Source: Clostridia bacterium (GTDB taxonomy: Bacteria; Bacillota; Clostridia; Oscillospirales; Acutalibacteraceae). From it: 47,482 bases of DNA. The position numbers and the translations under genes are program-made. Positions 2,524 through 38,341 of this stretch are shown here, piece after piece. Positions within the stretch are counted from its first letter, which is position 1. Every line of letters begins with the position of its first letter. The notes below the pieces were generated by a model, which searched no databases, was not told where the DNA came from, and saw only the letters and a program-made list of their open reading frames with translations. Location: positions 1 through 47,482 of the forward strand of contig JAFSDM010000031.1 of the NCBI GenBank assembly GCA_017436225.1, written 5' to 3'.

Positions 2524-2641
2524 AAAAAATACTTATTACCTCTTACTTGTTACTTCCAAAGCCCCAAGGACTTTTTAGGTAAGAGTGAAGAGGTAATAGG
2601 TAAGAAGTAAGCCCCAAGAACTTATTGTCCTTGGGGCTTTG
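2524..2641 (-). repeat. Adapter element, family B: terminator with an inverted copy of its arm and AAGAAGTAA-type tracts
   Basis: Read on the minus strand, a terminator hairpin (CTTGGGGCTT stem) is followed by an ACTTCTTACCTATTACC-type tract. An inverted copy of the terminator arm comes next: GTCCTTGGGGCTTTG at 2627-2641 is the exact complement of CAAAGCCCCAAGGAC near 2558-2572. A complementary AAGTAAGAGGTAATAAG tract and then the promoter of the lipoprotein gene complete it. The hairpin and its flank match the copy at 248-290. A second complete example with unrelated stem sequence is at 29166-29320. Its origin is unknown; it resembles neither an insertion sequence nor a CRISPR. Confidence 0.6.
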
Positions 2642-3274: not shown

Positions 3275-3303
3275 ATTATAGCATAAAAGCGGCAATAAAT
3301 CAA
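3275..3303 (-). promoter_or_regulatory. Array-borne promoter of the small membrane protein
   Basis: On the minus strand, TTGATT (3298-3303) and TATAAT (3275-3280) have a 17-base spacer ending CGCTTTTATGC. The -35 box overlaps the 3' arm of the final array hairpin CAATGC-TTC-GCATTG. The same layout recurs at 28656-28684 and, with a weaker -10, at 38313-38341. Confidence 0.75.
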
Positions 3304-3459
3304 TGCGAAGCATTGTGTGTAATCAATTCCGCAAGGAATTGCATATCATCAAGCCGACAGAATTATATACACACCTTCGGTGTGATGATATACGCCGCAC
3401 TTGTGCGGCAATGATATACACGACTGCGTCGTGATGATATACCAAGCCTGTCGGCTTGG
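3301..3459 (-). repeat. Symmetric hairpin array A1
   Basis: On the minus strand, the array starts straight after a terminator T-run (TTTTTTATCC). It then lists short perfect or near-perfect hairpins with different stems: CCAAGCCgacaGGCTTGG, ACGACgcaGTCGT, GCCGCACaaGTGCGGC, ACACCgaaGGTGT, AATTCCttgcGGAATT and AATGCttcGCATT. Linkers in the first half read (G)TATATCATC. Linkers after the midpoint read GATGATATGC and GATTACACAC, essentially the reverse complement. An outer stem pairs AAGCCGACAG (3448-3457) with CTGTCGGCTT (3351-3360). The array ends in the promoter of the gene at 2732-3253. I cannot place it in a named repeat or RNA family. Confidence 0.8.
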
Positions 3460-3504
3460 ATAAAAAACCGCTCTTTTAAAGGGCGGTTTTTTAGGGGGGA
3501 GAAA
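3459..3504. repeat. 46-bp block heading the left phage module; perfect inverted copy at 38092-38137
   Basis: Every base of this block is repeated in reverse complement at 38092-38137. It contains a terminator-type hairpin (AAAAAACCGC at 3462-3471 with GCGGTTTTTT at 3483-3492), a run of six G (3494-3499) and GAGAAA (3499-3504). Oddly, the hairpin sits between two divergent promoters, where no known transcript needs terminating. The two copies face each other across 34.6 kb. Confidence 0.9.
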
Positions 3505-3527: not shown

Positions 3528-3585
3528 TTTCTTAGCATAGATGCTTTAGCAGTATTTTTAAAAATGGCTGAAAGGAGAAGTGAGA

Positions 3586-3861
3586 ATGGAAAATCAAAAG
3601 CCAACTACCCCAAACCCGCCTAAGCGCAGAAGTCAAAGCGACAAAAAGCGCAAGAAAAATCTTATGCTTGCGGCAGATAGCGCCATAAACAGGCTTGAAG
3701 TTCTTTCTCGCCCCGGCGGCGAGATTGAAAGTATGGATATTAAGGAGCTTAAAAATCTTATTTCCTCCATAAAGGAGCTTGTTGGCGTATCCTTAGAGCT
3801 TTCGGGTGAGGCGCAGTCGGGCGGTGTGGTTGTATTGCCGGAGGTAAACATAAATGTCTGA
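3586..3861 (+). CDS. Small protein in the terminase-small-subunit position
   Basis: A 91-residue protein. The ATG at 3586 has AAAGGAG eight bases upstream; an in-frame GTG at 3580 would be too close to that site. The N-terminal 28 residues are rich in Lys, Arg and Pro. The rest is predicted helical (IESMDIKELKNLISSIKEL), followed by a short Val-rich tail. The stop overlaps the large terminase start by 8 bp, indicating translational coupling. Position and a basic N-terminus fit a small terminase subunit or DNA-recognition partner, but I see no diagnostic motif, so the role is inferred from context. Confidence 0.55.
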   Translation: MENQKPTTPNPPKRRSQSDKKRKKNLMLAADSAINRLEVLSRPGGEIESMDIKELKNLISSIKELVGVSLELSGEAQSGGVVVLPEVNINV

Positions 3862-5284
3862 CACCGTTTGGAAGCCTCAAAAAAAGCAGATAGATTTTTT
3901 ATCCCGTAATGAGTACGAGGTGCTTTACGGCGGTGCGGCGGGTGGCGGTAAAAGTGACGCTCTTTTGGTGGAGGCTCTCCGTCAGGTGCATATTCCCCAC
4001 TACACCGCCCTTATTTTGCGAAAAACGGTGCCTCAGCTAAGTGAGCTTATTGACCGTAGCAGACAGATTTATTCGGTAGCCTTTCCCAAAGCTAATTACA
4101 ACTCTACCGAGCACGTTTGGCGGTTCCCGTCGGGCGCTAAAATTCATTTTGGCAGTATGCAGTACGTTAAGGACAGAATAAATTATCAGGGCAAGCGCTA
4201 TGATTTTATAGCCTTTGATGAGCTTACCCACTTCACCTGGGAGGAATACAGCTATATGTTCTCCCGCAACCGCCCCTCAGGTGCAGGGACAAGGGTTTAC
4301 ATCAGGGCAACCACCAACCCCGGCGGTGTGGGTCACGGCTGGGTAAAGGAGCGTTTTATTACCCCCGCTCCGCCCCTTACCCCCATCACCGATACATACA
4401 GCGTTGTTTCACCGAGCGGTGAGGTGGTTGAAATGAAAAGACAGAGGGTTTTTGTTCCCTCTACCGTCTTCGATAACGAAATTCTGCTTAAAAACAATCC
4501 CGAATATCTGGCAAGTCTTGCAATGCTCCCCGAAGCCGAAAAAAAGGCTCTGCTTTACGGCGACTGGGATAGCTTCGACGGGCAGGTGTTTACCGAATGG
4601 CGTAACGACTCCGCCCACTATGACGATATGCGGTTTACCCACGTTGTTGCCCCATTTAGAATTCCACGCCATTGGCAAATTTACAGGGGCTTTGACTTCG
4701 GTTACACAAGACCATTCAGCGTTGGTTGGTATGCCTGTGACGGCGATGGCAGACTCTTTAGAATAAGGGAATATTACGGCTGTACGGGAAGGCCCAATCA
4801 GGGCGTACGCTTTGAGCCGTCACGCATTGCAGAGGAAATACGCAGTATTGAGGAAAACGACCCCAACATACGGGGCAGAAGAATTATAGGTATTGCCGAC
4901 CCCTCTATTTTTGATGGGTCAAGAGGTCGCTCGGTGGCAGAGATAATGGAAAAATCGGGCGTTTTCTGGCGCGCGGGTGATAACTCTCGCATTTCGGGTA
5001 AAATGCAGTATCATTACAGATTTGCCTTTGACCGCGAGGGTGTGCCTATGCTCTATATTTTTAACACCTGTAAAAATTTCATACGAACGGTGCCCTCCCT
5101 TTGCTATGACACCCTTAATGTAGAGGATATTGACACATCATCTGAGGACCATATTTATGATGAGTGCAGATACGTTTTAATGCACATTCCCATTAAGGCA
5201 AGGGAGCATTATCAAGCTCCAAAAGGCGAAAAGTTTTCGCCTCTTTCCAATGCTGAAAATAAGGTTAATTTTTTAAGAATTTAG
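3854..5284 (+). CDS. terL: Phage terminase large subunit (packaging ATPase and nuclease)
   Basis: A 476-residue protein of normal length for the family. The N-terminal ATPase has Walker A GGAAGGGKS (residues 26-34), Walker B FIAFDE (118-123) and a coupling motif TTNPGG (153-158). The C-terminal RNase H-like nuclease begins at RGFDFGYTRPF, with the first acidic residue D281. Further candidate metal ligands lie in IGIADPSIFDG and in the late YDECRY motif. The protein cuts concatemeric DNA and pumps it into a procapsid through the portal. All catalytic motifs are intact, with no frameshift. It is coupled to the preceding small gene and followed 16 bp later by the portal gene. It heads a module lacking capsid genes, which lie about 27 kb away. 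Confidence 0.93.
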   Translation: MSDTVWKPQKKQIDFLSRNEYEVLYGGAAGGGKSDALLVEALRQVHIPHYTALILRKTVPQLSELIDRSRQIYSVAFPKANYNSTEHVWRFPSGAKIHFGSMQYVKDRINYQGKRYDFIAFDELTHFTWEEYSYMFSRNRPSGAGTRVYIRATTNPGGVGHGWVKERFITPAPPLTPITDTYSVVSPSGEVVEMKRQRVFVPSTVFDNEILLKNNPEYLASLAMLPEAEKKALLYGDWDSFDGQVFTEWRNDSAHYDDMRFTHVVAPFRIPRHWQIYRGFDFGYTRPFSVGWYACDGDGRLFRIREYYGCTGRPNQGVRFEPSRIAEEIRSIEENDPNIRGRRIIGIADPSIFDGSRGRSVAEIMEKSGVFWRAGDNSRISGKMQYHYRFAFDREGVPMLYIFNTCKNFIRTVPSLCYDTLNVEDIDTSSEDHIYDECRYVLMHIPIKAREHYQAPKGEKFSPLSNAENKVNFLRI

Positions 5285-5300
5285 AAAGGAAAAATGTTTT

Positions 5301-6893
5301 ATGAAGGAAAAAAGCAAACAAAAAATTATAGGCATAAAGGAAATCAGAAAAGCCTATCAAACCCTGCTTTTATACAAGCAGGGCAAACGCTCGTTGGATG
5401 CAAGAATTGTAGAAAATGAGGAATGGTATAAGCTTCGTTGCGGTTGCACCGCCGATGGAAAGCTGGGTCAAAACTCGGCGTGGATTTTCAACTCCATAAT
5501 AAACAAGCACGCCGACGCTATGGATTGTTACCCCGAGCCAAACGTTTTGGCAAGAGAAAAGGGCGATGAAGCGCTAGCCAAAAAGTTTTCGGCAATTCTG
5601 CCTATTATTTTGGAGCAACAAAACTTTGAGCAAACCTACTCCGACGCTTGGTGGTACAAGCTTAAAACAGGTACGGGCGTATACGGTGTTTTTTGGAATA
5701 ACGAGCTTGAAAACGGTCTTGGCGATGTTGACATTAAACAGCTTGATATTCTCAATCTGTTTTGGGAGCCGGGCATAAAAAATCTAGAGCAATCGGCTAA
5801 CCTGTTTTATGCTACTGCGGTTGACAAGTCGGCGCTTATGGCAGAATATCCCGACAAGGCCGATAAAATCAAAAGCGGTTTTGGTGAGCTTTCAGCATAC
5901 CGAATGGACGACGGCATTATTGATACCAGCAAGGCGCTTGTGGTGGATTGGTACTACAAGAAAAAGGTGGGCTCAAAAACTCTGCTTCACTACTGCAAAT
6001 TTTCGGGCGAGGCGCTGCTTTTTGCCTCGGAAAATGAACCGCAGTACAGGCTGAGAGGTTTTTATGACCACGGCAAGTATCCAATAGTTTTTGACACCCT
6101 TTTTGTAACCGAAAATTCCCCTGCGGGCTTTGGCTACATTGATGTTATGAAAGGGTGCCAAACCACTATTGACAAGCTTTCGGTAGCGGTTGAAAGAAAC
6201 GCTCTTATGGGTGAAACACCTCGCTTTTTCATAAGCGACAGCGCAGGAATTAACGAGGAAGAATACGCCGATTGGTCGCGCACCTTTATTCACACCACAG
6301 GCAGAATAGATGACCAGACCTTAAAACAGGTTTCGGTTGAAAACATATCCGAAGCTACTCTTAAATTTTTAAATTTCAAGGTAAACGAGCTAAAGGAAAC
6401 CTCGGGCAACCGAGATTTTTCACAAGGCTCTACCAACTACGGCGTTACCGCCGCATCGGCTATTTTAGCCCTTCAAGAGGCGGGCAATAAGCTTTCAAGG
6501 GATATGATTAAATCCGCCTTCCGCGCCTATTCCAACATATGCTATTTAATTTTAGAGCTTGTAAGGCAGTTCTACACCGAGCCAAGAAGCTTTCGCATTA
6601 CCGAAAACGGCGGAAGCGACAGATACATTGTTTTCCAAAACAAGGATTTGCTGGAAAATCATCCCTTTGCAAACTATCGCCCCATATTCGATATAAAAAT
6701 CATTCCCCAAAAGCAAAGCCCATACCAAAAGGCAAGTCAAAACGAGCTAGCAAAGGAAATGTTTAGTCTTGGTATGCTTGACCCCGAGCGTAGAAGCGAG
6801 GCTAAAATGGCAGTCAAGCTAATGGATTTTCACGGCAAGGAGGAGCTTTTAGCCAGACTTTCATCGGAAGAAAATGAGGTAGAAATGCTATGA
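5301..6893 (+). CDS. Phage portal protein
   Basis: A 530-residue protein, close to the usual size of portals in phages with N4-gp56-type capsids. The beginning (residues 14-110) has the pattern of portal families: a basic stretch, WYKLRCG, then SAWIFNSIINKHADAMDCYPEPNV cut short here as a motif around residues 52-75. The middle includes QLDILNLFWEPG and a helical region rich in Gln/Ala near residues 390-420. Twelve copies would form the vertex ring through which TerL pumps DNA. The position directly after terL supports the call; a finer subfamily is uncertain. The stop overlaps the next start (ATGA). Confidence 0.85.
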   Translation: MKEKSKQKIIGIKEIRKAYQTLLLYKQGKRSLDARIVENEEWYKLRCGCTADGKLGQNSAWIFNSIINKHADAMDCYPEPNVLAREKGDEALAKKFSAILPIILEQQNFEQTYSDAWWYKLKTGTGVYGVFWNNELENGLGDVDIKQLDILNLFWEPGIKNLEQSANLFYATAVDKSALMAEYPDKADKIKSGFGELSAYRMDDGIIDTSKALVVDWYYKKKVGSKTLLHYCKFSGEALLFASENEPQYRLRGFYDHGKYPIVFDTLFVTENSPAGFGYIDVMKGCQTTIDKLSVAVERNALMGETPRFFISDSAGINEEEYADWSRTFIHTTGRIDDQTLKQVSVENISEATLKFLNFKVNELKETSGNRDFSQGSTNYGVTAASAILALQEAGNKLSRDMIKSAFRAYSNICYLILELVRQFYTEPRSFRITENGGSDRYIVFQNKDLLENHPFANYRPIFDIKIIPQKQSPYQKASQNELAKEMFSLGMLDPERRSEAKMAVKLMDFHGKEELLARLSSEENEVEML

Positions 6894-7162
6894 CAACCGT
6901 TGCGGCAGCCTTAATTTCGGCTATATCGTCCATTACGGTTGGCGTTTTAACCCTTATGGGCGTGGTTATTACAAACAGTAGGGTAAACAGGGATATTGAG
7001 CAAAAAATTACGGTGGCTCAAGCCGTTACCGACACCAAGCTTGCCGAGCTTACCCGTGAGGTTCGTGAGCATAATCAGATGGTAAAACGGGTACCCGTTG
7101 TGGAGGAGCAAATGAAGGTTGTTAATCACAGAATAGCCGATATTGAGAATATACTGAATTAG
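6890..7162 (+). CDS. Membrane-anchored coiled-coil protein, holin-associated
   Basis: A 90-residue protein overlapping the portal stop by 4 bp (ATGA). Residues about 4-27 form one transmembrane helix. The rest is charged, helical and heptad-like, ending VVEEQMKVVNHRIADIENI. Proteins of this form lie next to holins in Firmicutes phages, where XhlA-like partners help lysis. The phrase EVREHNQMVKRVPVVEEQ is one I associate with such phage proteins, from memory. Function as a holin partner is inferred from architecture and from the holin and amidase that follow. Confidence 0.6.
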   Translation: MTTVAAALISAISSITVGVLTLMGVVITNSRVNRDIEQKITVAQAVTDTKLAELTREVREHNQMVKRVPVVEEQMKVVNHRIADIENILN

Positions 7163-7185
7163 AAGTAAAAAAAGGAGGAAAATTA

Positions 7186-7392
7186 ATGAAAACTAAATTT
7201 TTAAACTGGGTTAAAGCGGCAGGCGTAAGAATGGTAAAAACCATGGCAGAAACTGCCCTTGCAATTATCGGTACAAATACGGTAGGCATTACCGAGGTTG
7301 ATTGGGTAGGTGTAATAAGCGCTTGCGCTTTATCGGGCGTTATTACCGTGCTTACTTGTGTTAAAGGCTTACCTGAACTAAGGGAGGAATAA
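7186..7392 (+). CDS. Phage holin, r1t type
   Basis: A 68-residue protein with AAAGGAGGA upstream. It has an amphipathic basic N-terminus (FLNWVKAAGVRMVKT), a hydrophobic segment around residues 20-32, the characteristic turn VGITEVDWVGV, and a second hydrophobic segment at about 41-58, ending GLPELREE. This matches the phage r1t holin family, which forms membrane lesions releasing the endolysin. The amidase gene starts 4 bp after its stop, so the two form a lysis cassette. Confidence 0.85.
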   Translation: MKTKFLNWVKAAGVRMVKTMAETALAIIGTNTVGITEVDWVGVISACALSGVITVLTCVKGLPELREE

Positions 7393-7395
7393 ATA

Positions 7396-8088
7396 ATGGC
7401 AAAAAGAGTGTTTATTGGTGTGGGTCACGGCGGAAGTGATAGCGGAGCAGTTGCAAACGGCTTTAAAGAAAAGGATTTAAATCTTGCGATTGCTCTTGCT
7501 TGCCGTGATGAGCTTACCCGCCACGGTGTAAAAGTGGGTATGAGCCGAACAAAGGATGAAGCCGACCCATTAACAGATGAGATTAAAGAGTGCAACGCTT
7601 TCGGCCCTGATTACGCGGTGGAAATTCACAACAACGCGGGCGGCGGCGACGGGGTAGAAATCTACCATCATTACGGAGGTGGCAAGGGTAAAACCTTGGC
7701 GCAGAATATACTGAATGAGATTGTTGCAATCGGTCAAAATTCTCGCGGTCTTAAAACAAAAAAGAACAGCGACGGCAGGGATTATTTTGGTTGGATAAGG
7801 CAGACCGTTGCTCCCGCCTGTTTGGTTGAATGTGCTTTTGTGGATAATAAGAAAGATATTACCATAATTGACACCGCCGCCGAGCAAAAGAAAATGGGCA
7901 TAGCCATTGCAAAAGGCATACTCAAAACCCTTGGCATTACTTGGATGGCAGAAAAGCCAAAAGAAACGCCTGTAAATGATACCAAAAAGCTTTACAGGGT
8001 TCAGGTTGGTGCATATGCCGAGCTTAAAAACGCCGAGGAAATGCTTAAAAAATTAAAATCCGCCGGCTTTGACGGAATAATTGTATAA
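7396..8088 (+). CDS. N-acetylmuramoyl-L-alanine amidase (endolysin) with partial SPOR-like tail
   Basis: A 230-residue protein. Residues 1-178 form an Amidase_3 fold that cleaves the bond between muramic acid and the stem peptide. Zinc ligands are visible as the His in GVGHGGSDSG (residue 10) and the His in EIHNNAG; the catalytic Glu lies in LVECAFVDN. After a short linker, residues 197-230 (LYRVQVGAYAELKNAEEMLK...) resemble the first half of a SPOR peptidoglycan-binding domain, then stop. Similar short tails occur in clostridial phage lysins, so this need not be damage. It has no signal peptide and therefore depends on the adjacent holin. Confidence 0.88.
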   Translation: MAKRVFIGVGHGGSDSGAVANGFKEKDLNLAIALACRDELTRHGVKVGMSRTKDEADPLTDEIKECNAFGPDYAVEIHNNAGGGDGVEIYHHYGGGKGKTLAQNILNEIVAIGQNSRGLKTKKNSDGRDYFGWIRQTVAPACLVECAFVDNKKDITIIDTAAEQKKMGIAIAKGILKTLGITWMAEKPKETPVNDTKKLYRVQVGAYAELKNAEEMLKKLKSAGFDGIIV

Positions 8089-22393: not shown

Positions 22394-22485
22394 GGAGAGA
22401 TGGCTGAGCTGGTCTAAGGCGCACGACTGGAAATCGTGTTCAGGCTTAAACCCTGACGGGGGTTCGAATCCCCCTCTCTCCGCCA
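22394..22485 (+). tRNA. tRNA-Ser (anticodon GGA)
   Basis: The acceptor stem GGAGAGA pairs with TCTCTCC, and discriminator G and CCA are encoded. The anticodon stem CACGA/TCGTG holds loop CTGGAAA, giving anticodon GGA for UCC/UCU. A long variable arm (class II) and the T-loop GGTTCGAATCC are present. A terminator follows immediately. Confidence 0.97.
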
Positions 22486-22520
22486 AAAAAGAACGACTCC
22501 CACGAGTCGTTCTTTTTTTA
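22486..22520 (+). terminator. Terminator of tRNA-Ser
   Basis: GAACGACTC (22491-22499) pairs with GAGTCGTTC (22504-22512), followed by a T-run. Hairpin array A2 begins two bases after the T-run. Confidence 0.9.
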
Positions 22521-22521
22521 T

Positions 22522-22717
22522 CCAAGCCGCAGGCTTGGCATATCATCACCGCACGTAGTGTGGTGCATATCATCAAAAAGCAAACTGCAGTTTACTTTTT
22601 GTATCTCATCACGGCAACGCCGTGCATCATTATTCTTGCGGCTTGATGATATACAACACTTCGTGTTGATGATATGCAATTCCTTTCGGAATTGATGATA
22701 TACAAGGCTTCGCCTTG
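22522..22717 (+). repeat. Symmetric hairpin array A2
   Basis: It starts with CCAAGCC-gca-GGCTTGG right after the tRNA terminator. The units that follow have different stems: ACCGCACgtaGTGTGGT, a longer AAAGCAAACTGCAGTTTACTTT palindrome-like unit around 22577-22600, ACGGCaacGCCGT, AACACttcGTGTT, AATTCCtttcGGAATT and AAGGCttcGCCTT. First-half linkers are CATATCATC-like; second-half linkers are GATGATATAC. The outer stem pairs AAGCCGCA (22524-22531) with TGCGGCTT (22637-22644). The final hairpin supplies the -35 box of the promoter at 22715-22743. Confidence 0.8.
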
Positions 22718-22743
22718 ATTTGTTTCCGCGGAAGTAGTATAAT
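22715..22743 (+). promoter_or_regulatory. Array-borne promoter of the four-helix-bundle gene pair
   Basis: TTGATT (22715-22720), a 17-base spacer and TATAAT (22738-22743). The -35 overlaps the last array hairpin, as at the other arrays. Confidence 0.75.
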
Positions 22744-22764
22744 ACTATTGAAAGGAGTGTTTCT

Positions 22765-23112
22765 ATGCCGAAAAATTATTTGCTGATATATTCTGAACAG
22801 CTTGCGACAGAAACAGAATTGCTTTGTCAAAATATAAAAGCACCATCGAACACTCTTTTTCAAATTCGTAAAAGTTCAAGTAGCATTTATGCAAATATTC
22901 GTGAAGCGAAATACGGACAGAGCAAAGCAGATATGCTTTCAAAATTTGAAATTGCTCTAAAGGAATGTAGCGAAACAGAGGGATGGTTACGGTTATTATT
23001 CAACACGAATGGTATTGATGACGAGACATACAAAAAACACAGAAATCTCTGCGGTCGTATAAGGCGAATGTTGATTTCAAGCTGTAAAACCTTAAAGGAG
23101 AATGCAAAATGA
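22765..23112 (+). CDS. Four-helix bundle protein (S23/Avd-like)
   Basis: A 115-residue, wholly helical, basic protein. The central pattern IYANIREAKYGQSKADML, then a KFEIALKECSETEGWLRLL stretch, matches the four-helix bundle family that includes the 23S intervening-sequence protein and the Avd accessory protein of diversity-generating retroelements. Those proteins form pentameric barrels that bind nucleic acid. No reverse transcriptase or template repeat is visible nearby, so the Avd role is not supported. GAAAGGAG precedes the ATG. The gene overlaps the next by 4 bp and is driven by the array A2 promoter. Confidence 0.75.
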   Translation: MPKNYLLIYSEQLATETELLCQNIKAPSNTLFQIRKSSSSIYANIREAKYGQSKADMLSKFEIALKECSETEGWLRLLFNTNGIDDETYKKHRNLCGRIRRMLISSCKTLKENAK

Positions 23113-23459
23113 ATTTAGCGGACATTTGCAAAGAGTTGCAGAATTGTTTCATAAAAGTTCGTCATTTCACTTTTGTTGATGACCAAGAATTGCTTAAAGA
23201 TGCATTAGATCGGATTAGGGATTATGAAAAATATATCATAGACAAGCAGTTAGGTTCAGAATGTCCCATTCTTGTGTATTGTATAAAAACGCTTTTTGAA
23301 ATCGCAGCCGAGAACAACAAGAAGAAAATGTATGATTTTGCTGACGCTATACACAATATGCCGGAGATCTATCTTGGCAAGAGAACATACGATTCTTTTT
23401 TGCTTGAAATCACATCTTTCTGTGATATATACGGTGATTCGTATTTTAAGTGTCTGTAA
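23109..23459 (+). CDS. Conserved-looking small protein of unknown function
   Basis: A 116-residue, mostly helical, acidic protein without membrane segments or a signal peptide. I recognise no family. It contains four Cys residues scattered from position 13 onward, with no clear metal-binding spacing. The start overlaps the four-helix-bundle stop (ATGA), so the two are translationally coupled and likely act together. Confidence 0.6.
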   Translation: MNLADICKELQNCFIKVRHFTFVDDQELLKDALDRIRDYEKYIIDKQLGSECPILVYCIKTLFEIAAENNKKKMYDFADAIHNMPEIYLGKRTYDSFLLEITSFCDIYGDSYFKCL

Positions 23460-23469
23460 CGCTACTTTT

Positions 23470-23590
23470 ACTTACTCTTACCTCGATTCTTCTCCGTTTG
23501 GTTACTCTTAGGCAAAAGAAAACCACCGATTTCGGTGGTTTTTTTGTTTGACGGTAGGTAAGAAGTAAAAAGTAAAAGGGAATAAGTTTA
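23470..23590. repeat. Terminator flanked by complementary TTACTT/AAGTAA tracts (family B variant)
   Basis: A strong terminator AACCACCG-att-TCGGTGGTT (23521-23540) is flanked on the left by a CTTTTACTTACTCTTACC tract and on the right by a roughly complementary GGTAAGAAGTAAAAAGTAAA tract. The tracts can extend the hairpin stem. Downstream, 23590-23690 holds two more hairpins (CCCCCgaaGGGGG, and AAAAACCgcgaaaGGTTTTT), then the promoter of the deaminase gene. I recognise no gene there. Confidence 0.6.
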
Positions 23591-23691
23591 AGGATAAGGG
23601 GGGTGAGAGCCCCCGAAGGGGGTGTACGTCGAAGCAGGCAAAAAACCGCGAAAGGTTTTTTGAACTGTGAAGTCTCGAGCACCGCAAAGCG

Positions 23692-23720
23692 TTGATTATA
23701 AATATAGCTTATGGTATAAT
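23692..23720 (+). promoter_or_regulatory. Promoter of the deaminase gene
   Basis: TTGATT (23692-23697), a 17-base spacer and TATAAT (23715-23720). The -35 follows GCAAAGC, again placing it at the end of a small hairpin-like unit. Confidence 0.7.
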
Positions 23721-23757
23721 CTAACCGATAAATTAGAATTTGACGAGGAGATTACTT

Positions 23758-24153
23758 ATGGAAAAGATATGGAATGAAATGTATGAAGCCGCAAAAGCCG
23801 TATTGAATGAGCGGAGAATTTCGGAATATGTCACCTGCGGAGAAGTATCCGCTGCGGTCTGTTCAAAATCAGGAAAGATATATACGGGGGTTTGTATCGA
23901 CACCTGCTCAACACTTGGCATTTGTGCAGAAAGAAATGCTATTTTTAATATGATTACTAACGGTGAACAGGAAATTGACAAAGTTCTTTGTATTTTGCCC
24001 GATGGTTCTAACGGCGCTCCTTGTGGTGCTTGTCGAGAACTTATGGTTCAACTTATGGCAGGAAATTATTATGATATAGAAATTATGCTTGATTATTCCA
24101 CGGGCAAAACCATAAAACTCGGTGAAATAACTCCTGAATGGTGGATTAAATAA
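23758..24153 (+). CDS. Cytidine deaminase-like protein
   Basis: A 131-residue zinc hydrolase of the cytidine deaminase superfamily. The motif pair CAERNA (catalytic Glu, first zinc Cys) and PCGACRE (two zinc Cys) is intact and correctly spaced. Length fits tetrameric cytidine deaminases and the related blasticidin-S deaminases, so the substrate could be cytidine or a cytosine-containing compound. The start is the ATG at 23758 after GAGGAG; a TTG at 23740 lies upstream of that site. It stands alone behind its own promoter in the accessory zone. Confidence 0.85.
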   Translation: MEKIWNEMYEAAKAVLNERRISEYVTCGEVSAAVCSKSGKIYTGVCIDTCSTLGICAERNAIFNMITNGEQEIDKVLCILPDGSNGAPCGACRELMVQLMAGNYYDIEIMLDYSTGKTIKLGEITPEWWIK

Positions 24154-28474: not shown

Positions 28475-28658
28475 CCAATCCGAAGGATTGGTATGTAATC
28501 TCGCGTAGCGAGGATGTAATCACGCGTAGCGTGTATGGCATCACCGCAGGTGTATTTTCTTCGGATTGATTACATACCACCTACGGTGGATTACATACAT
28601 TTCTTCGAAATGATTACATCCAACACTTCGTGTTGATTTCATACAATGCTCCGCATTG
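28475..28658 (+). repeat. Symmetric hairpin array A3
   Basis: It begins CCAATCC-gaa-GGATTGG, directly after the tRNA-Leu terminator. Units include CTCGCgtaGCGAG, CACGCgtaGCGTG, CACCTacgGTGG, ATTTCttcGAAAT, AACACttcGTGTT and AATGCtccGCATT. Here the linkers read ATGTAATC in the first half and GATTACATAC in the second, a matched change relative to arrays A1 and A2. The outer stem is AATCCGAAG (28477-28485) with CTTCGGATT (28559-28567). The final hairpin gives the -35 box of the next gene. Confidence 0.8.
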
Positions 28659-28684
28659 ATTTATTATCGCTTTTATGCTATACT
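28656..28684 (+). promoter_or_regulatory. Array-borne promoter of the PH-like membrane protein gene
   Basis: TTGATT (28656-28661), a 17-base spacer ending GCTTTTATGC, and TATACT (28679-28684). It nearly matches the promoter at 3275-3303. Confidence 0.75.
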
Positions 28685-35251: not shown

Positions 35252-35279
35252 GCTCGTCTTTTTAAGACGGGCTTTTTTA
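35252..35279 (+). terminator. Terminator of mntP overlapping the phage gene stop
   Basis: GCTCGTCTT and AAGACGGGC pair (one G-T), followed by TTTTTT. The stop codon of the leftward gene at 35277 lies inside this T-run. Confidence 0.8.
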
Positions 35280-35645
35280 TATCCTGCCTGTGAGATGAGT
35301 GTTTTTGATCGGAGTATAGCTTCGGCGGTAGAAAATAGCAAGCCTGTTGTACTTTTCACTAAAAAGAGCAGAATAGGCGTTGGCTACCTCTAAATTCATT
35401 TCATTAAGAGAAAGCATCCAAAAGACATAATAAACATAAAGCAAAATATGCTCCTCGTTTAAAAGTAAAGCCGCATGAGCGTCGGTGTTAAAGTTGAGCG
35501 GAGCGGTGCGAACAGAAATTCCGCAAGGCGAAAAAATTTCGCAAGCTAGCTTATGCTCAAGGTCGTTTACTATTCTGCAAACCTCATAAAGCTCTACTTC
35601 GGGGAAGCGTTCCTTAACCGCGGCGTCAATATCTAAAAGTTTCAT
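35277..35645 (-). CDS. Phage structural-position protein, possible head connector
   Basis: A 122-residue, mainly helical protein, last gene of the right phage module. Position after capsid and a small head protein, and its size, fit head-tail connector or head-completion proteins. I see no decisive motif. Its stop lies within the terminator of the convergent mntP gene, so the module ends abruptly against host sequence, with no tail genes beyond. Confidence 0.5.
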   Translation of the reverse strand: MKLLDIDAAVKERFPEVELYEVCRIVNDLEHKLACEIFSPCGISVRTAPLNFNTDAHAALLLNEEHILLYVYYVFWMLSLNEMNLEVANAYSALFSEKYNRLAIFYRRSYTPIKNTHLTGRI

Positions 35646-35672
35646 TTTAATTCCTGCTTTCGTATTAAGCGG

Positions 35673-36017
35673 TTAGCTAACGCTTTTTTCATAATCTGCT
35701 TGAAGCTTTTCAACAAGCGAGGCAACATACTCATCCTGAGCGAGTGAGTTTCTAAGTACCTCTTCAACAAAGCGGGGAACGGTAACCTCAACACCGCGTT
35801 TAATTAAAAATGAACGGTCGTTAACCGAAACGTAAACGTCATCACGGTATTTGGCGTTATCCTTAAAAAGCTTTATGGTAACGTTTTCGTTCATATAAGC
35901 CTCGTTAGCCTTTATACCTTCGCTTATTGCCATTTCAGCATTTTCTTTTTCGTTTAAAGCTGCCTTAAGTCTTGCAATTTCCTTTTCAAGTGCAGCAGTA
36001 TTTTTTGTTTCTGCCAT
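35673..36017 (-). CDS. Small phage head-associated protein
   Basis: A 114-residue protein. Residues 1-45 form a coiled coil. The second half, VTIKLFKDNAKYRDDVYVSV with RSFLIKRGVEVTVPRFV, is a beta pattern I associate with small proteins encoded next to N4-gp56-type capsids; this is from memory. GGAGGA precedes the ATG. A GC-rich hairpin at 36056-36076 separates it from the capsid gene. Confidence 0.6.
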   Translation of the reverse strand: MAETKNTAALEKEIARLKAALNEKENAEMAISEGIKANEAYMNENVTIKLFKDNAKYRDDVYVSVNDRSFLIKRGVEVTVPRFVEEVLRNSLAQDEYVASLVEKLQADYEKSVS

Positions 36018-36055
36018 TAGTAAAATTCCTCCAATAAAGTTATTTCTAAGGTAAA

Positions 36056-36076
36056 GGGGGCATAGCTAATGCCCCC
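36056..36076 (-). terminator. Intercistronic hairpin after the capsid gene
   Basis: GGGGGCAT pairs with ATGCCCCC around AGCTA. There is no T-run, so it more likely stabilises the capsid message or reduces read-through than fully terminates. Confidence 0.55.
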
Positions 36077-36096
36077 CGAAGCAGATAAAAATCTAA

Positions 36097-37302
36097 TTAG
36101 TTAGCGTATTCATCTGCAAAGCTGGAACAGGATTCAATACGAATCATATAGTTTTCAACCAAACGCTCGGCTGTTTTTGTAGCCTTCCAGCCTGCGGAAG
36201 CTCGTTGGTTAAGCGGGTCGGCAGTACCGGCAGAGCCTAACTGTTTTACAATGTGCTCCAAACCGCCGTTTTCAAGCTCGGTTACACCGTAGGCGTTAGC
36301 GCCAAGAACAAGGGTGGAATAAACGGGAGCACCATCTTGAGCTGCCTCACCGGGATAAATAATGTCGTCCTCTTTTATAGAGATAGCTTCATCAAGTGTG
36401 ATGTTGTCAAGAAGACCGACTTCGGTTTCGGCATTTACAATTTTGCGTACCTGACCGTTAATAATAATTGTTCTGCCTATAATAGACTGTAAGTTTTCAC
36501 TACCAATTCTTTCTCGAATATCAATGACGTTATCACTGCATTGAAAAGCAGTTAGCGTACGGCGGTTTGGCAAAAGGTCGGGAGCACGAAAAATTTTCGC
36601 CTCGCTCGATTCTACAAAACGCACGTTGCCGATTTTACCAACCTCGCCGTTAAAAAGGTTTTCGGGAGCCGCATATTTATGGGCGTCCATCCATTCTGCG
36701 GATTTCATAAGGTCGTAAGCAACGTAGGGGTGAATAATGGCAACGAAGCTGCCGTTAATGGTTTTTGCAAGGTTGTTTTTAAGCTTTGCGGCGGCGCGTA
36801 AAATAAGGTCTACGCTAAGGGTTGCATCGCTTGTTAGGGATGAACGTGAATTAACCTTAGTGACAACGCCGTCTTTAATAATCGGTGCGTACATAACATT
36901 GGTACCGCCGTTTAAAACTTCCCTTGTAACGGTGTCTAAGGTTCTGCCTGCCTGATCACCCAAAATTTCGGTAGCCTGAACCATATTGGTGTCAATAGCG
37001 GTAAGCTCAAGCATATCGGGAATACCTACCCAACCGCCGTACTGTGCAACGGTTGAAGTAACGGTAGAAACCTTAAGCTCCTGACCGTCGGGAGTGATAC
37101 CCTCGGTAAGGGGAACGGTAGCCTTTGGAAGAGGTGAATATTTTCTAAACTCAATGGTCTTACCGTTGCCCTTTGGAATGGGGTGCTTCTGACCGAATTG
37201 GTCGTGTACAAGGTTTTCGTTTGCGTTGTCACAAAGGTAGTCCTTGTAGTAAGTTTTCATATCGTTAGAAAGGGTTTGTTCGTTGTTATTAACTTGACTC
37301 AT
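36097..37302 (-). CDS. Major capsid protein, N4-gp56 family
   Basis: A 401-residue protein with the HK97-like N4-gp56 family pattern: an early GNGKTIEFRKYSPLPKATVP, then LTEGITPDG, a middle QYGGWVGIPDML, LDTVTREVLNGGTNV, and a C-terminal GWKATKTAERLVENYMIRIE. Several hundred copies would form the head that receives DNA from TerL and portal. No frameshift is seen. AAAGGAG precedes the ATG. It follows a scaffold-like gene, as in complete phage clusters. Yet its terminase and portal partners lie about 30 kb away in opposite orientation. Confidence 0.92.
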   Translation of the reverse strand: MSQVNNNEQTLSNDMKTYYKDYLCDNANENLVHDQFGQKHPIPKGNGKTIEFRKYSPLPKATVPLTEGITPDGQELKVSTVTSTVAQYGGWVGIPDMLELTAIDTNMVQATEILGDQAGRTLDTVTREVLNGGTNVMYAPIIKDGVVTKVNSRSSLTSDATLSVDLILRAAAKLKNNLAKTINGSFVAIIHPYVAYDLMKSAEWMDAHKYAAPENLFNGEVGKIGNVRFVESSEAKIFRAPDLLPNRRTLTAFQCSDNVIDIRERIGSENLQSIIGRTIIINGQVRKIVNAETEVGLLDNITLDEAISIKEDDIIYPGEAAQDGAPVYSTLVLGANAYGVTELENGGLEHIVKQLGSAGTADPLNQRASAGWKATKTAERLVENYMIRIESCSSFADEYAN

Positions 37303-37317
37303 AATTCTATTTCTCCT

Positions 37318-37959
37318 TTAAAATTCAATTTCTTCGCCCATTAAGGCCTTTTTTGCAAGCTCCCTTCGTTTTTGGGGTGTAAGACTGCTTACTGAAGTCT
37401 TGGCAATATAGCCCTTCCCCAATAGAGCAGATTCGCTTGGCCTTGCCGATTTTTGGCGAATACTATCGGCAATCTGCTTTGCCGCAAGCTCGGCACCGTA
37501 ACGCATCGAGGAGTCCATAAATTCATTAAGGTGGAGGACACGATATGCTGTATCACGGTCTACGCCCGCCTTTAAAAGATTTTCAAAGGCAGGGCTGTTT
37601 TCTGTGGCAGAGCCATCACCGTTTTGGTTAATTTCGGCAGAAGCATCACAACCGGTTTCAGCGGCTTCGCCGTTTGCCGATTTATTTTCGGCGTTTTTTT
37701 GCTCTTTAAAGCGTTTGTTAATAATGCTCTGTACCTTGTTGGCAAAAGCATCCTTGTAGGGCCCTTTTATAAGCTCTTCAAATTCCAAGTCCGAAGTGGA
37801 GCTTTGATTTTCCTTTTCGGGCTTTTCATTTTCGGCATCGGCAGAAATTTCTTTCTTTAGGCTGTCACCGTTTGAACTTATGTTGATTTTTTGACTTGCT
37901 GAAGAAGTGTTTTCCTCACCGATTTGGTTGCCGTTTAAATTTTCAGTTTCTTTTTGCAC
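37318..37959 (-). CDS. Phage scaffolding-like protein
   Basis: A 213-residue, strongly charged protein rich in Glu, Lys, Asn and Ser. The first half looks disordered. A helical second half (residues about 125-165) precedes a basic C-terminal tail, RRELAKKALMGEEIEF. This composition and the place directly before the capsid gene are typical of scaffolds, which guide capsid assembly and are then removed. The start is GTG at 37959 with AAAGGAG eight bases upstream; the ATG at 37977 lies too close to that site. Confidence 0.75.
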   Translation of the reverse strand: MQKETENLNGNQIGEENTSSASQKINISSNGDSLKKEISADAENEKPEKENQSSTSDLEFEELIKGPYKDAFANKVQSIINKRFKEQKNAENKSANGEAAETGCDASAEINQNGDGSATENSPAFENLLKAGVDRDTAYRVLHLNEFMDSSMRYGAELAAKQIADSIRQKSARPSESALLGKGYIAKTSVSSLTPQKRRELAKKALMGEEIEF

Positions 37960-38068
37960 AAAAATTTCTCCTTTCATCGTCTTTCCGAAGTGTCATACCG
38001 CCCTTGGTGGCGCCGTGTCGGGGACTAAAAAGCTTTGTTTTTGCCCGACTTCCAAGCAGCGTGGCTAT
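37960..38068 (-). promoter_or_regulatory. Structured leader of the capsid operon
   Basis: About 100 bases lie between the promoter and the GTG start. Foldable parts include GTCGGG...CCCGAC around an AAAAA/TTTTT inner stem, CGCC-accaag-GGCG, and TCTT...AAGA close to the binding site. The left module's leader is only about 55 bases and does not share them. A regulatory role is possible but not shown. Confidence 0.35.
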
Positions 38069-38097: not shown

Positions 38098-38137
38098 CCC
38101 CCTAAAAAACCGCCCTTTAAAAGAGCGGTTTTTTATC
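38092..38137. repeat. 46-bp block heading the right phage module; inverted copy of 3459-3504
   Basis: Perfect reverse complement of the left block: terminator hairpin AAAAAACCGC/GCGGTTTTTT, six-base C run (G run on the minus strand) and GAGAAA. Array A4 begins at its outer edge, as array A1 does at the left copy. Confidence 0.9.
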
Positions 38138-38315
38138 AAATCCGAAGGACTTTGATGTAATCTCGCGTAAGCGAGTATGTAATCAGTTCGCTTTGCGAAC
38201 TGTATGTTATCAAAGCGCAAGCTTTGTATTTTTCTTACCTTCGGATTGATTACATACATTTCTTTGTGTTGATTATATACCGACTTTGTCGGATTACATA
38301 CAACGCTCCGCATTG
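38137..38315 (+). repeat. Symmetric hairpin array A4
   Basis: It starts CAAATCCgaaGGACTTTG after the terminator T-run. Units include CTCGCgtaaGCGAG, AGTTCGctttGCGAACT, AAAGCgcaaGCTTT, CCGACtttGTCGG and a degenerate AACGCtccGCATT. Linkers are ATGTAATC in the first half and GATTACATAC or GATTATATAC in the second. The outer stem is AATCCGAAG (38139-38147) with CTTCGGATT (38239-38247). It shares the linker type and outer stem with A3, but most hairpins differ. Confidence 0.78.
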
Positions 38316-38341
38316 ATTTTTCGCCGCTTTTATGCTATGGT
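38313..38341 (+). promoter_or_regulatory. Array-borne promoter, decayed -10
   Basis: TTGATT (38313-38318), a 17-base spacer ending GCTTTTATGC, and TATGGT (38336-38341). About 230 bases remain to the HTH gene, and a nearer TTGTTT-N16-TATAAT (about 38510-38537) may have replaced it. A palindrome AGTTGT-N7-ACAACT (38481-38499) lies upstream of that and could be an operator. Confidence 0.5.

What the first reader, a model, noticed from the sequence alone, without database searches (positions are those of the whole stretch)
22522..22717. Arrays of variable hairpins with mirror-image linkers
Four arrays (A1-A4) share a plan. Short hairpins with unrelated stems but small GAA, TTC or GCA loops are joined by a constant linker. 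The linker is (G)TATATCATC in the first half and its reverse complement, GATGATATAC, in the second. The two halves can therefore pair linker to linker, with hairpins projecting as side arms. Stems vary while pairing is kept, so structure rather than sequence is conserved. I cannot match this to a named repeat, riboswitch or RNA.
Basis: seen in the sequence. Interest (0 to 1): 0.88.

Follow-up and report, generated by a model that had tools for sequence, protein, structure and literature searches.

The report
Folded-repeat element behind tRNA genes
Behind tRNA genes and other gene ends, this gut bacterium carries short DNA elements made of hairpins joined by a mirror-image linker; several copies are scattered over the genome, and one stands in front of the gene for a small protein of unknown function, which is probably their partner.

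Summary
In detail: 22522-22719 is a strongly folding array, and three relatives lie in the window (A1 3299-3459, A3 28475-28660, A4 38137-38317). The linker is not constant: A3 and A4 use TATGTAATC. A model of 14 arrays predicts linker-to-linker pairing with compensatory changes and finds such arrays in 24 of 120 genomes of the family. The array seems to carry its own terminator, and 19 of 29 arrays checked sit directly behind tRNA genes, 14 anticodons in all. The partner is the gene just downstream, a four-helix-bundle protein (PF05635, 23S_rRNA_IVP): of 78 relatives, mostly in Clostridia, 66 have a repeated, mirrored array upstream (controls 31 of 276), and linker sequence follows protein lineage. 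In 15 of 18 plasmid loci from five phyla the same gene is flanked by tandem heptamers (controls 2 of 54). My best reading: a transposase-less selfish element with the IVP as its dedicated nucleic-acid-binding protein, and array-only copies as non-autonomous derivatives. Movement and binding are inferred, not shown. No Rfam family matches the arrays.

The parts
22485..22519 (+). H0: intrinsic-terminator hairpin, probably the 5' end of the element, starting at the 3' end of a tRNA-Ser gene (22394-22485)
   Evidence: sequence; 25 of 29 arrays have a terminator hairpin at this place; all 9 array pairs with the same terminator core sit at different sites, 7 behind different tRNAs and 2 with no tRNA found at one of the two sites
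22522..22538 (+). H1: first hairpin, CCAAGCC-GCA-GGCTTGG; its 5' arm plus loop is complementary to the centre
22539..22624 (+). left half: linkers catatcat (22539-22546, 22566-22573) and tatctcat (22602-22609) joined to three hairpins (22547-22565 and 22576-22601 imperfect, read by eye; 22610-22624 perfect)
22637..22645 (+). centre: TGCGGCTTG, complementary to 22523-22531 in H1 (helix P1)
   Evidence: own H1:centre complement of 8-13 bp in 13 of 13 arrays with a located H1, 9 bp here; covariation in 20 arrays
22646..22717 (+). right half: linkers atgatata / atgatatg (reverse complement of the left linkers) with hairpins 22654-22668, 22677-22694, 22703-22717
22715..22743 (+). promoter-like TTGATT-17-TATAAT; the -35 hexamer begins in the 3' arm of the last hairpin
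   Evidence: same layout in A1, A2, A3, A4; rare in IVP upstream regions in general, 6 of 127 against 1 of 276 controls
22765..23112 (+). IVP gene: four helix bundle protein, PF05635 23S_rRNA_IVP / TIGR02436, 115 aa
   Evidence: Pfam E 1.9e-18; NCBIfam E 5.7e-21; a profile of 11 such proteins matches PDB 2rld, E 8.9e-44
23109..23459 (+). 116-aa ORF overlapping the IVP stop by 4 bases; no family found; possibly a passenger, since the gene after the IVP usually differs between elements
3299..3459 (-). A1: array-only copy, TATATCATC linker, H1 CCAAGCC-GACA-GGCTTGG, terminator-like hairpin at about 3462-3491, followed by a 193-aa ORF
28475..28660 (+). A3: array-only copy behind tRNA-Leu, linker TATGTAATC / GATTACATA, H1 CCAATCC-GAA-GGATTGG
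38137..38317 (+). A4: array-only copy, linker TATGTAATC, first-hairpin 3' arm partly decayed while complementarity to the centre is kept

Best explanation
The arrays are the nucleic-acid part of a small selfish mobile element that has no transposase; its one dedicated protein is the IVP, a four-helix-bundle protein whose solved relatives have five chains per entry. A complete copy is terminator (H0) + H1 + left half + centre + right half + promoter + IVP gene, as at 22485-23112; the other window arrays are array-only copies, comparable to MITEs or REPINs. As a single strand (RNA, or single-stranded DNA at a replication fork) the two halves zip up linker to linker in steps of 7-8 bp with hairpins projecting from the junctions, and the centre can alternatively pair with H1 (P1). 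The IVP ring recognises the linker steps of its own lineage, acting on its own array and, in trans, on array-only copies, and host enzymes carry out copying and joining, preferentially just 3' of tRNA genes and other gene ends. Shown here: the structure and its covariation, the presence of copies at many non-orthologous sites, the IVP-array association and the lineage-specific linker. Inferred: IVP binding, mobilisation in trans, the single-stranded intermediate, and the use of host enzymes.
For: Association: of 80 IVP loci fetched (the most similar to 11 IVPs of this family, so not a random sample), 78 had 280 nt upstream; 66 of 78 carry repeated 7-mers with long-range inverted copies against 31 of 276 control gene starts in the same loci, and 58 of 78 carry at least 4 small hairpins against 25 of 276. 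Cognate pairing: linker similarity tracks IVP identity (n 92, Mantel r 0.69, p 0.0005). With the window-type model, 10 IVPs in 120 family genomes have an array whose end lies 47-139 bp before the PF05635 match; of the 10 IVPs of 60-72 bits in array-positive genomes 9 are adjacent and the tenth is within 60 bp of its contig end; 21 of 24 array-positive genomes have an IVP against 33 of 96 others, Fisher p 2.4e-6. Dispersal: 9 array loci in this genome and 83 listed in the family; 19 of 29 arrays lie within 120 nt of a tRNA 3' end, 14 anticodons. At three tRNA genes compared in the genus, the site holds different arrays, a truncated one, or none (by eye). Structure: linker helices and hairpins with double changes; P1 own against swapped 9.8 against 6.0 bp in 95 arrays, permutation p 5e-5, the floor; 28 double-change cells against at most 24 in 2000 shuffles. 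Generality: 15 of 18 IVP loci on plasmids of five phyla have 7-nt-periodic runs of 10 nt or more against 2 of 54 controls, no other lag from 4 to 12 stands out, and 12 of 18 have up- and downstream flanks complementary over 11 nt or more against 0 of 54. In two Nostoc plasmids a heptamer-flanked IVP replaces the middle of a cytosine methyltransferase gene that is intact in three others.
Against: No transposition was observed, and no clean empty/filled pair with both flanks conserved was found; the Nostoc case is a replacement with loss of about 330 bp. I know of no catalytic residues in IVPs (recalled), so the joining enzyme is unnamed. Twelve of 78 IVP genes lack the repeated 7-mer signal, and the best-scoring PF05635 loci (such as L027, L028, L029, L031) show at most short tandem units upstream, no hairpin array (by eye). 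Arrays occur without any IVP in 3 of 24 array-positive genomes, and this genome holds TATGTAATC arrays without a detected cognate IVP, although the assembly is 88% complete. Two of the 8 genus genomes have no window-type array by the pattern. The linker-lineage correlation shows co-inheritance and would arise without any binding. In one search one measure, the number of extra pair types (7), lies within the shuffles (mean 5.1, maximum 9).
Confidence: 0.5

Rival explanations
1. Regulatory array: the array is a portable operator, promoter and insulator. The IVP binds the linkers and controls its own promoter and, in trans, the genes behind array-only copies, so the arrays form a regulon rather than a mobile element.
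For: All four window arrays end in a promoter-like TTGATT-17-TATAAT-type pair whose -35 overlaps the last hairpin, and so do L020, L057, L059, L061 and L065; linkers are lineage specific; the terminator on the other side would insulate.
Against: The -35/hairpin overlap is found in 6 of 127 IVP upstream regions only, though in 1 of 276 controls, and not in L001, L005, L006, L060, L070; a strict promoter match in the last 130 nt is only modestly enriched, 44 of 127 against 58 of 276; downstream genes usually differ between copies; plasmid IVPs sit between paired heptamer arrays inside operons or over a gene, which looks like insertion.
Confidence: 0.2
2. RNA-processing spacer: like the 23S rRNA intervening sequence, the folded RNA is a substrate of RNase III and serves to separate or protect transcript ends; the IVP is a passenger or RNA chaperone.
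For: The protein family is that of 23S IVS; the IVS is bordered by complementary ends, is cut by RNase III and carries heptameric repeats before its S23p gene in Coxiella (PMC4990558: abstract, introduction and passages seen).
Against: The arrays are mirror-symmetric, so both strands match the model, and most lie behind a terminator, so they need not be transcribed from the tRNA side.
Confidence: 0.15
3. Passive repeats: heptamers and hairpins arise by slippage and template switching at replication and merely accumulate at gene ends; the IVP link is historical.
For: Heptameric repeats are common in bacteria and polymerase slippage has been proposed for them (cited in PMC4679880, passage seen); template switching can keep quasi-palindromes matched (recalled).
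Against: The strong, lineage-specific link to one protein family across phyla, the conserved slot order and the P1 helix are not expected from slippage.
Confidence: 0.1

Closest known systems
Intervening sequence (IVS) of 23S rRNA with S23 protein (Coxiella, Leptospira and others)
   Same: Same protein family (PF05635); complementary ends that fold into a stem-loop; heptameric repeats just before the S23p start in Coxiella (PMC4990558); called a selfish element there.
   Different: Not inside rRNA; array of hairpins and linkers upstream of the gene rather than a stem around it; terminator at its end; many array-only copies, often behind tRNA genes; linker differs by lineage.
Heptameric tandem repeats of cyanobacteria, Xanthomonas and Beggiatoaceae
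   Same: Unit of 7 nt, mostly intergenic, in Xanthomonas often as inverted pairs (PMC4692102 and PMC4679880, passages seen); plasmid IVPs here are flanked by such repeats.
   Different: In Clostridia the 7-8-nt units are separated by hairpins and have a defined centre; the term S23 has no hit in either paper.
REP / REPIN elements with RAYT transposase
   Same: Dispersed palindromic non-autonomous copies next to gene ends with one autonomous gene in trans (recalled).
   Different: REPs are conserved in sequence and go with a Y1 transposase (recalled); Y1_Tnp is found in 1 of 8 genus genomes, with a stop inside, and not in this draft genome.
Avd of diversity-generating retroelements
   Same: Avd is a four-helix-bundle pentamer of the same superfamily (recalled).
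   Different: The only RVT_1 match of this genome lies on another contig (C24), and RVT_1 is found in 4 of 8 genus genomes.

Membership tests
23S rRNA intervening sequence (IVS) | encodes an S23 / IVP four-helix-bundle protein | tested here: met
   PF05635 E 1.9e-18, TIGR02436
23S rRNA intervening sequence (IVS) | located inside a helix of 23S (or 16S) rRNA | tested here: not met
   lies behind a tRNA-Ser gene; Rfam at gathering scores reports only two tRNAs in the window
23S rRNA intervening sequence (IVS) | complementary ends forming a stem | tested here: met
   linker-linker pairing within the array; but the array stands beside the gene, not around it
23S rRNA intervening sequence (IVS) | excision by RNase III | not testable with these tools
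   no RNA data
REPIN / RAYT | Y1 transposase (RAYT) in the genome | tested here: not met
   PF01797 not found in G000 (draft, 88% complete); 1 of 8 genus genomes
REPIN / RAYT | palindromes conserved in sequence | tested here: not met
   41 distinct stems among 103 hairpins of the arrays examined
Diversity-generating retroelement | reverse transcriptase in the element | tested here: not met
   the only RVT_1 match of this genome is on contig C24, not on the window's contig; 4 of 8 genus genomes have one while IVP is in 8 of 8
CRISPR array | identical direct repeats throughout, separated by unique non-structured spacers | tested here: not met
   the repeat inverts in the second half and the intervals are hairpins
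Rfam families (riboswitches, ncRNAs) | covariance model match over the gathering score | tested here: not met
   only tRNA reaches gathering; inside the array the best sub-threshold E is 0.23
Integron attC site | R-box / integrase-recognised folded site next to an integrase-borne cassette array | not tested
   no integrase search or attC model was run

The most novel reading that the evidence does not exclude
IVP proteins are linker- or heptamer-specific ring proteins that define a cosmopolitan class of transposase-less mobile elements. Clostridial hairpin arrays, cyanobacterial and other heptamer repeats, and the 23S rRNA intervening sequences are forms of one system, each IVP lineage carrying its own 7-nt code, and array-only copies are mobilised in trans to gene ends.
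Probability: 0.4. Interest if true: 0.93.

Novelty: categorically new. Interest (0 to 1): 0.85.

Why it matters
S23/IVP proteins are found in many bacteria and have solved structures, yet PMC4990558 says that they have no known function, and PMC4692102 says that the role of heptameric repeats remains to be elucidated (passages). A lineage-specific link between this protein and structured 7-nt repeats gives both a testable partner. PMC4679880 suggests that a repeat-binding protein might itself be the mobile element (passage); the IVP is a concrete candidate. If true, it would be a mobile-element class defined by nucleic-acid structure rather than by sequence or by a transposase.

Tried and rejected
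Rejected: known ncRNA or riboswitch; REP/RAYT; reverse transcriptase as a fixed requirement; a mainly viral home of the IVP: 5 loci confirmed from 85 candidate stretches in the viral contigs and 2 records in the phage collection; a defence-system label for the IVP (PADLOC).

Led nowhere or weak: a first own-against-swapped test of the centre with automatic hairpin definition gave only 5.62 against 5.14 (after), because linkers dominated and the first hairpin was often missed; it was replaced by the complement test. Within the same linker type 37% of swapped pairs also reach 9 bp, since first hairpins are shared within a type. The idea that loops show a DNA or RNA preference was dropped: loop polarity differs between linker types. 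The promoter overlap failed as a general feature. The genome census (249 kb: the window and 12 stretches) scored array A1 at only 16, no higher than many background windows, and scored two windows at 40 with no hairpins (C28 58361, C10 51601), which I did not inspect.

In one search two of 80 loci (L089, L101) were dropped for short upstream sequence. In one search L058 was dropped because my cut missed its centre, while one decayed (C28a) and one out-of-register array (L060) were counted. Of 26 plasmid records with an IVP, 18 were used; the controls there were picked by hand from the gene tables of the 10 longer loci (58 picked, 54 with full flanks). The match list was cut, so 83 loci is a lower bound and covers 23 of the 24 genomes; I collapsed the two strands by hand.

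Full report
What was checked. The stretch 22519-22720 folds much better than chance as DNA (z -7.7) and RNA (z -6.9), none of 200 shuffles doing as well. Rfam has nothing for it: over the whole window only two tRNAs reach a gathering score, and a permissive scan of 22400-22800 gave, inside the array, nothing better than E 0.23.

Four arrays, two linkers. The window holds A1 3299-3459 (-), A2 22522-22719 (+), A3 28475-28660 (+) and A4 38137-38317 (+). A1 and A2 use (G)TATATCATC in the first half and its reverse complement in the second; A3 and A4 use TATGTAATC / GATTACATA. So the plan is shared but the linker is not constant.

Anatomy. Relatives in the same genus (pattern search, 6 of 8 genomes, this one included) show the same slots: terminator, H1, left linkers with hairpins, a centre, right linkers with hairpins, last hairpin. 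Aligning 14 arrays and asking RNAalifold for a consensus gives three linker-to-linker helices with hairpins between them; 23 of 50 predicted pairs change on both sides in at least one sequence while staying paired, including linker positions that separate the two linker types. A further helix, P1, joins the 5' arm and loop of H1 to the centre: in 13 of 13 arrays with a located H1 (14 examined) the complement is 8-13 bp, with four H1 types. In 20 arrays of both linker types (17 distinct rows) P1 is 84% paired with 28 double-change cells, against means of 67% and 11 and maxima of 82% and 24 in 2000 shuffles; the number of extra pair types, 7, is not unusual. In several arrays (L057, L059, L060, L071, A4) the local H1 stem is weakened while the complement to the centre stays. 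P1 crosses the linker helices, so the two form a pseudoknot or are alternatives (inference).

The terminator appears to belong to the element. Of 29 arrays tested (20 from the genus and 9 from other genera of the family), 25 have a terminator hairpin immediately before H1 (31 of 4000 random positions), and 19 have a tRNA 3' end within 120 nt. A1 and A4 were among the four misses, although a terminator-like hairpin with a mismatch is visible there. Nine pairs of arrays share a terminator core: seven lie behind different tRNAs, and in two no tRNA was found at one of the sites. Fourteen anticodons occur. At three tRNA genes compared over the genus (tRNA-Ser, tRNA-Gly, tRNA-Tyr) the site holds different arrays, a truncated one, or none; only the tRNA side of those sites was matched, and the reading is by eye.

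The partner gene. Forty-five bases after the array starts an ORF for a four-helix-bundle protein: PF05635 23S_rRNA_IVP, TIGR02436. A profile of 11 such proteins finds PDB 2rld (E 8.9e-44) and 2gsc, XCC0516 (E 0.00035), each with five chains; the introduction of PMC4990558 describes the Xanthomonas S23p structure as a pentameric toroid. This genome has three IVP genes, and all 8 genus genomes have at least one. Of the first 20 loci scanned, 8 have a next ORF that overlaps the IVP stop by 1-8 bases; judged by their first 40 residues these differ, except that L013 and L014 share one. This suggests passengers.

Is the association general? A family-wide profile search found PF05635 in 54 of 120 genomes. 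They were chosen by similarity to 11 IVPs of this family, so they are not a random sample of PF05635. There, repeated 7-mers with long-range inverted copies occur in 66 of 78 against 31 of 276 control gene starts, and at least 4 small hairpins in 58 of 78 against 25 of 276. The linkers are of many kinds. Of 127 upstream regions (these 78 and 49 from the genus and family searches), 95 have a clear axis; in these the longest complement between start and own centre averages 9.8 bp against 6.0 for swapped centres, 68 of 95 reaching 9 bp against 4.6% of swaps. Pure 7-nt periodicity is less common here: runs of 9 or more at lag 7 in 21 of 127 against 3 of 276. Linker similarity rises with IVP identity, Mantel r 0.69, p 0.0005, n 92, with little similarity below 65% identity. 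Shared descent of gene and array would give this as well as recognition, so it shows co-inheritance, not binding.

Census with a covariance model. The model from the 14 arrays finds matches in 24 of 120 family genomes; both strands match, as a mirror-image element must. I collapsed the listed matches to 83 loci, a lower bound since the list was cut. This genome has nine. Ten IVPs have an array whose end lies 47-139 bp before the PF05635 match; the other listed arrays have none within 500 bp downstream. Array-positive genomes carry an IVP in 21 of 24 cases, others in 33 of 96.

Beyond Clostridia. On plasmids 26 records hold an IVP; the 18 fetched are from Cyanobacteriota, Bacteroidota, Spirochaetota, Chloroflexota and Bacillota. 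In these, runs of 7-nt periodicity of 10 nt or more occur in 15 of 18, against 2 of 54 control genes; no other lag from 4 to 12 differs. Twelve of 18 have up- and downstream flanks complementary over 11 nt or more, against 0 of 54. Positions include between cas2 and cas1, between genes for restriction subunits S and R, and, in two Nostoc plasmids, over the middle of a cytosine methyltransferase gene that is intact in three others, with loss of about 330 bp. The intact gene has CAATTCG at the left junction, matching the heptamer; one case only.

Interpretation. Structure, copies at non-orthologous tRNA ends, a terminator shared between sites, a single recurring protein family and stand-alone derivatives fit a mobile element better than a regulatory or passive repeat. 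What is missing is the enzyme and any observed move. Y1 transposase was not found in this genome and reverse transcriptase in only 4 of 8 genus genomes, so neither looks obligatory; the drafts are incomplete. I give the mobile-element reading 0.5, the regulatory reading 0.2, the RNA-processing reading 0.15 and passive repeats 0.1.

Literature. In nine searches of the open PMC library I saw no listed paper that joins IVP/S23 proteins with hairpin arrays, or with heptameric repeats outside the Coxiella IVS; results were seen as listings, subscription papers are mostly missing, and the search is by words. Three papers were opened: PMC4990558 (outline, abstract, introduction, passages), in which the Coxiella IVS has tandem heptamers just before S23p; PMC4692102 and PMC4679880 (passages), which describe heptameric repeats without a settled role; the latter raises a repeat-binding protein as a possible mobile element. 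That Avd is a related pentamer is recalled.

Novelty. By its parts it touches the IVS, but it fails the location that defines an IVS and combines features that I found in no described family (hairpin array with a centre helix, shared terminator, array-only copies, linker by lineage). I rate it categorically new, with the caveat that the IVS may turn out to be a special case of it.

Noticed in passing
window 3580-8088 and 35277-37977: Phage morphogenesis genes in two separate blocks: terminase large subunit, portal and endolysin on the left, N4-gp56-type major capsid protein and neighbours on the right. Each block begins next to an array (A1, A4), and the two arrays have the same terminator sequence.
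   Followed up: partly
window 2529-2640 (-): A heptamer-type element without hairpins (TTACCTC / GAGGTAA units) with a terminator whose arm is repeated at its centre; it precedes a 133-aa lipoprotein-like ORF. In congener G005 (L061) an ORF that looks related by eye instead follows a TATATCATC array.
   Followed up: partly
window 23500-23770; L185: Another sequence shared by eye, GTACGTCGAAGCAG - hairpin - ACTGTGAAGTCTCGAGCA, before a cytidine-deaminase-like gene in the window and behind tRNA-Tyr in congener G005.
   Followed up: no
L227 and L228 (Gloeocapsa and Chlorohelix plasmids): The same order DUF1156 protein - four helix bundle protein - Swt1-family HEPN protein in two phyla, so some IVPs may have become fixed parts of other systems.
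   Followed up: no
L208 and L218 (Nostoc plasmids) against L214-L216: A heptamer-flanked IVP replaces about 330 bp in the middle of a DNA cytosine methyltransferase gene; both remaining ends are well conserved. A third record (H29) looks similar but was not opened.
   Followed up: partly
L005 about 640-670: A remnant that looks like the start of an AACATC-type element (GTGCC-GACA-GGCAC-AACATCAT), the linker type of the IVP at L007.
   Followed up: no
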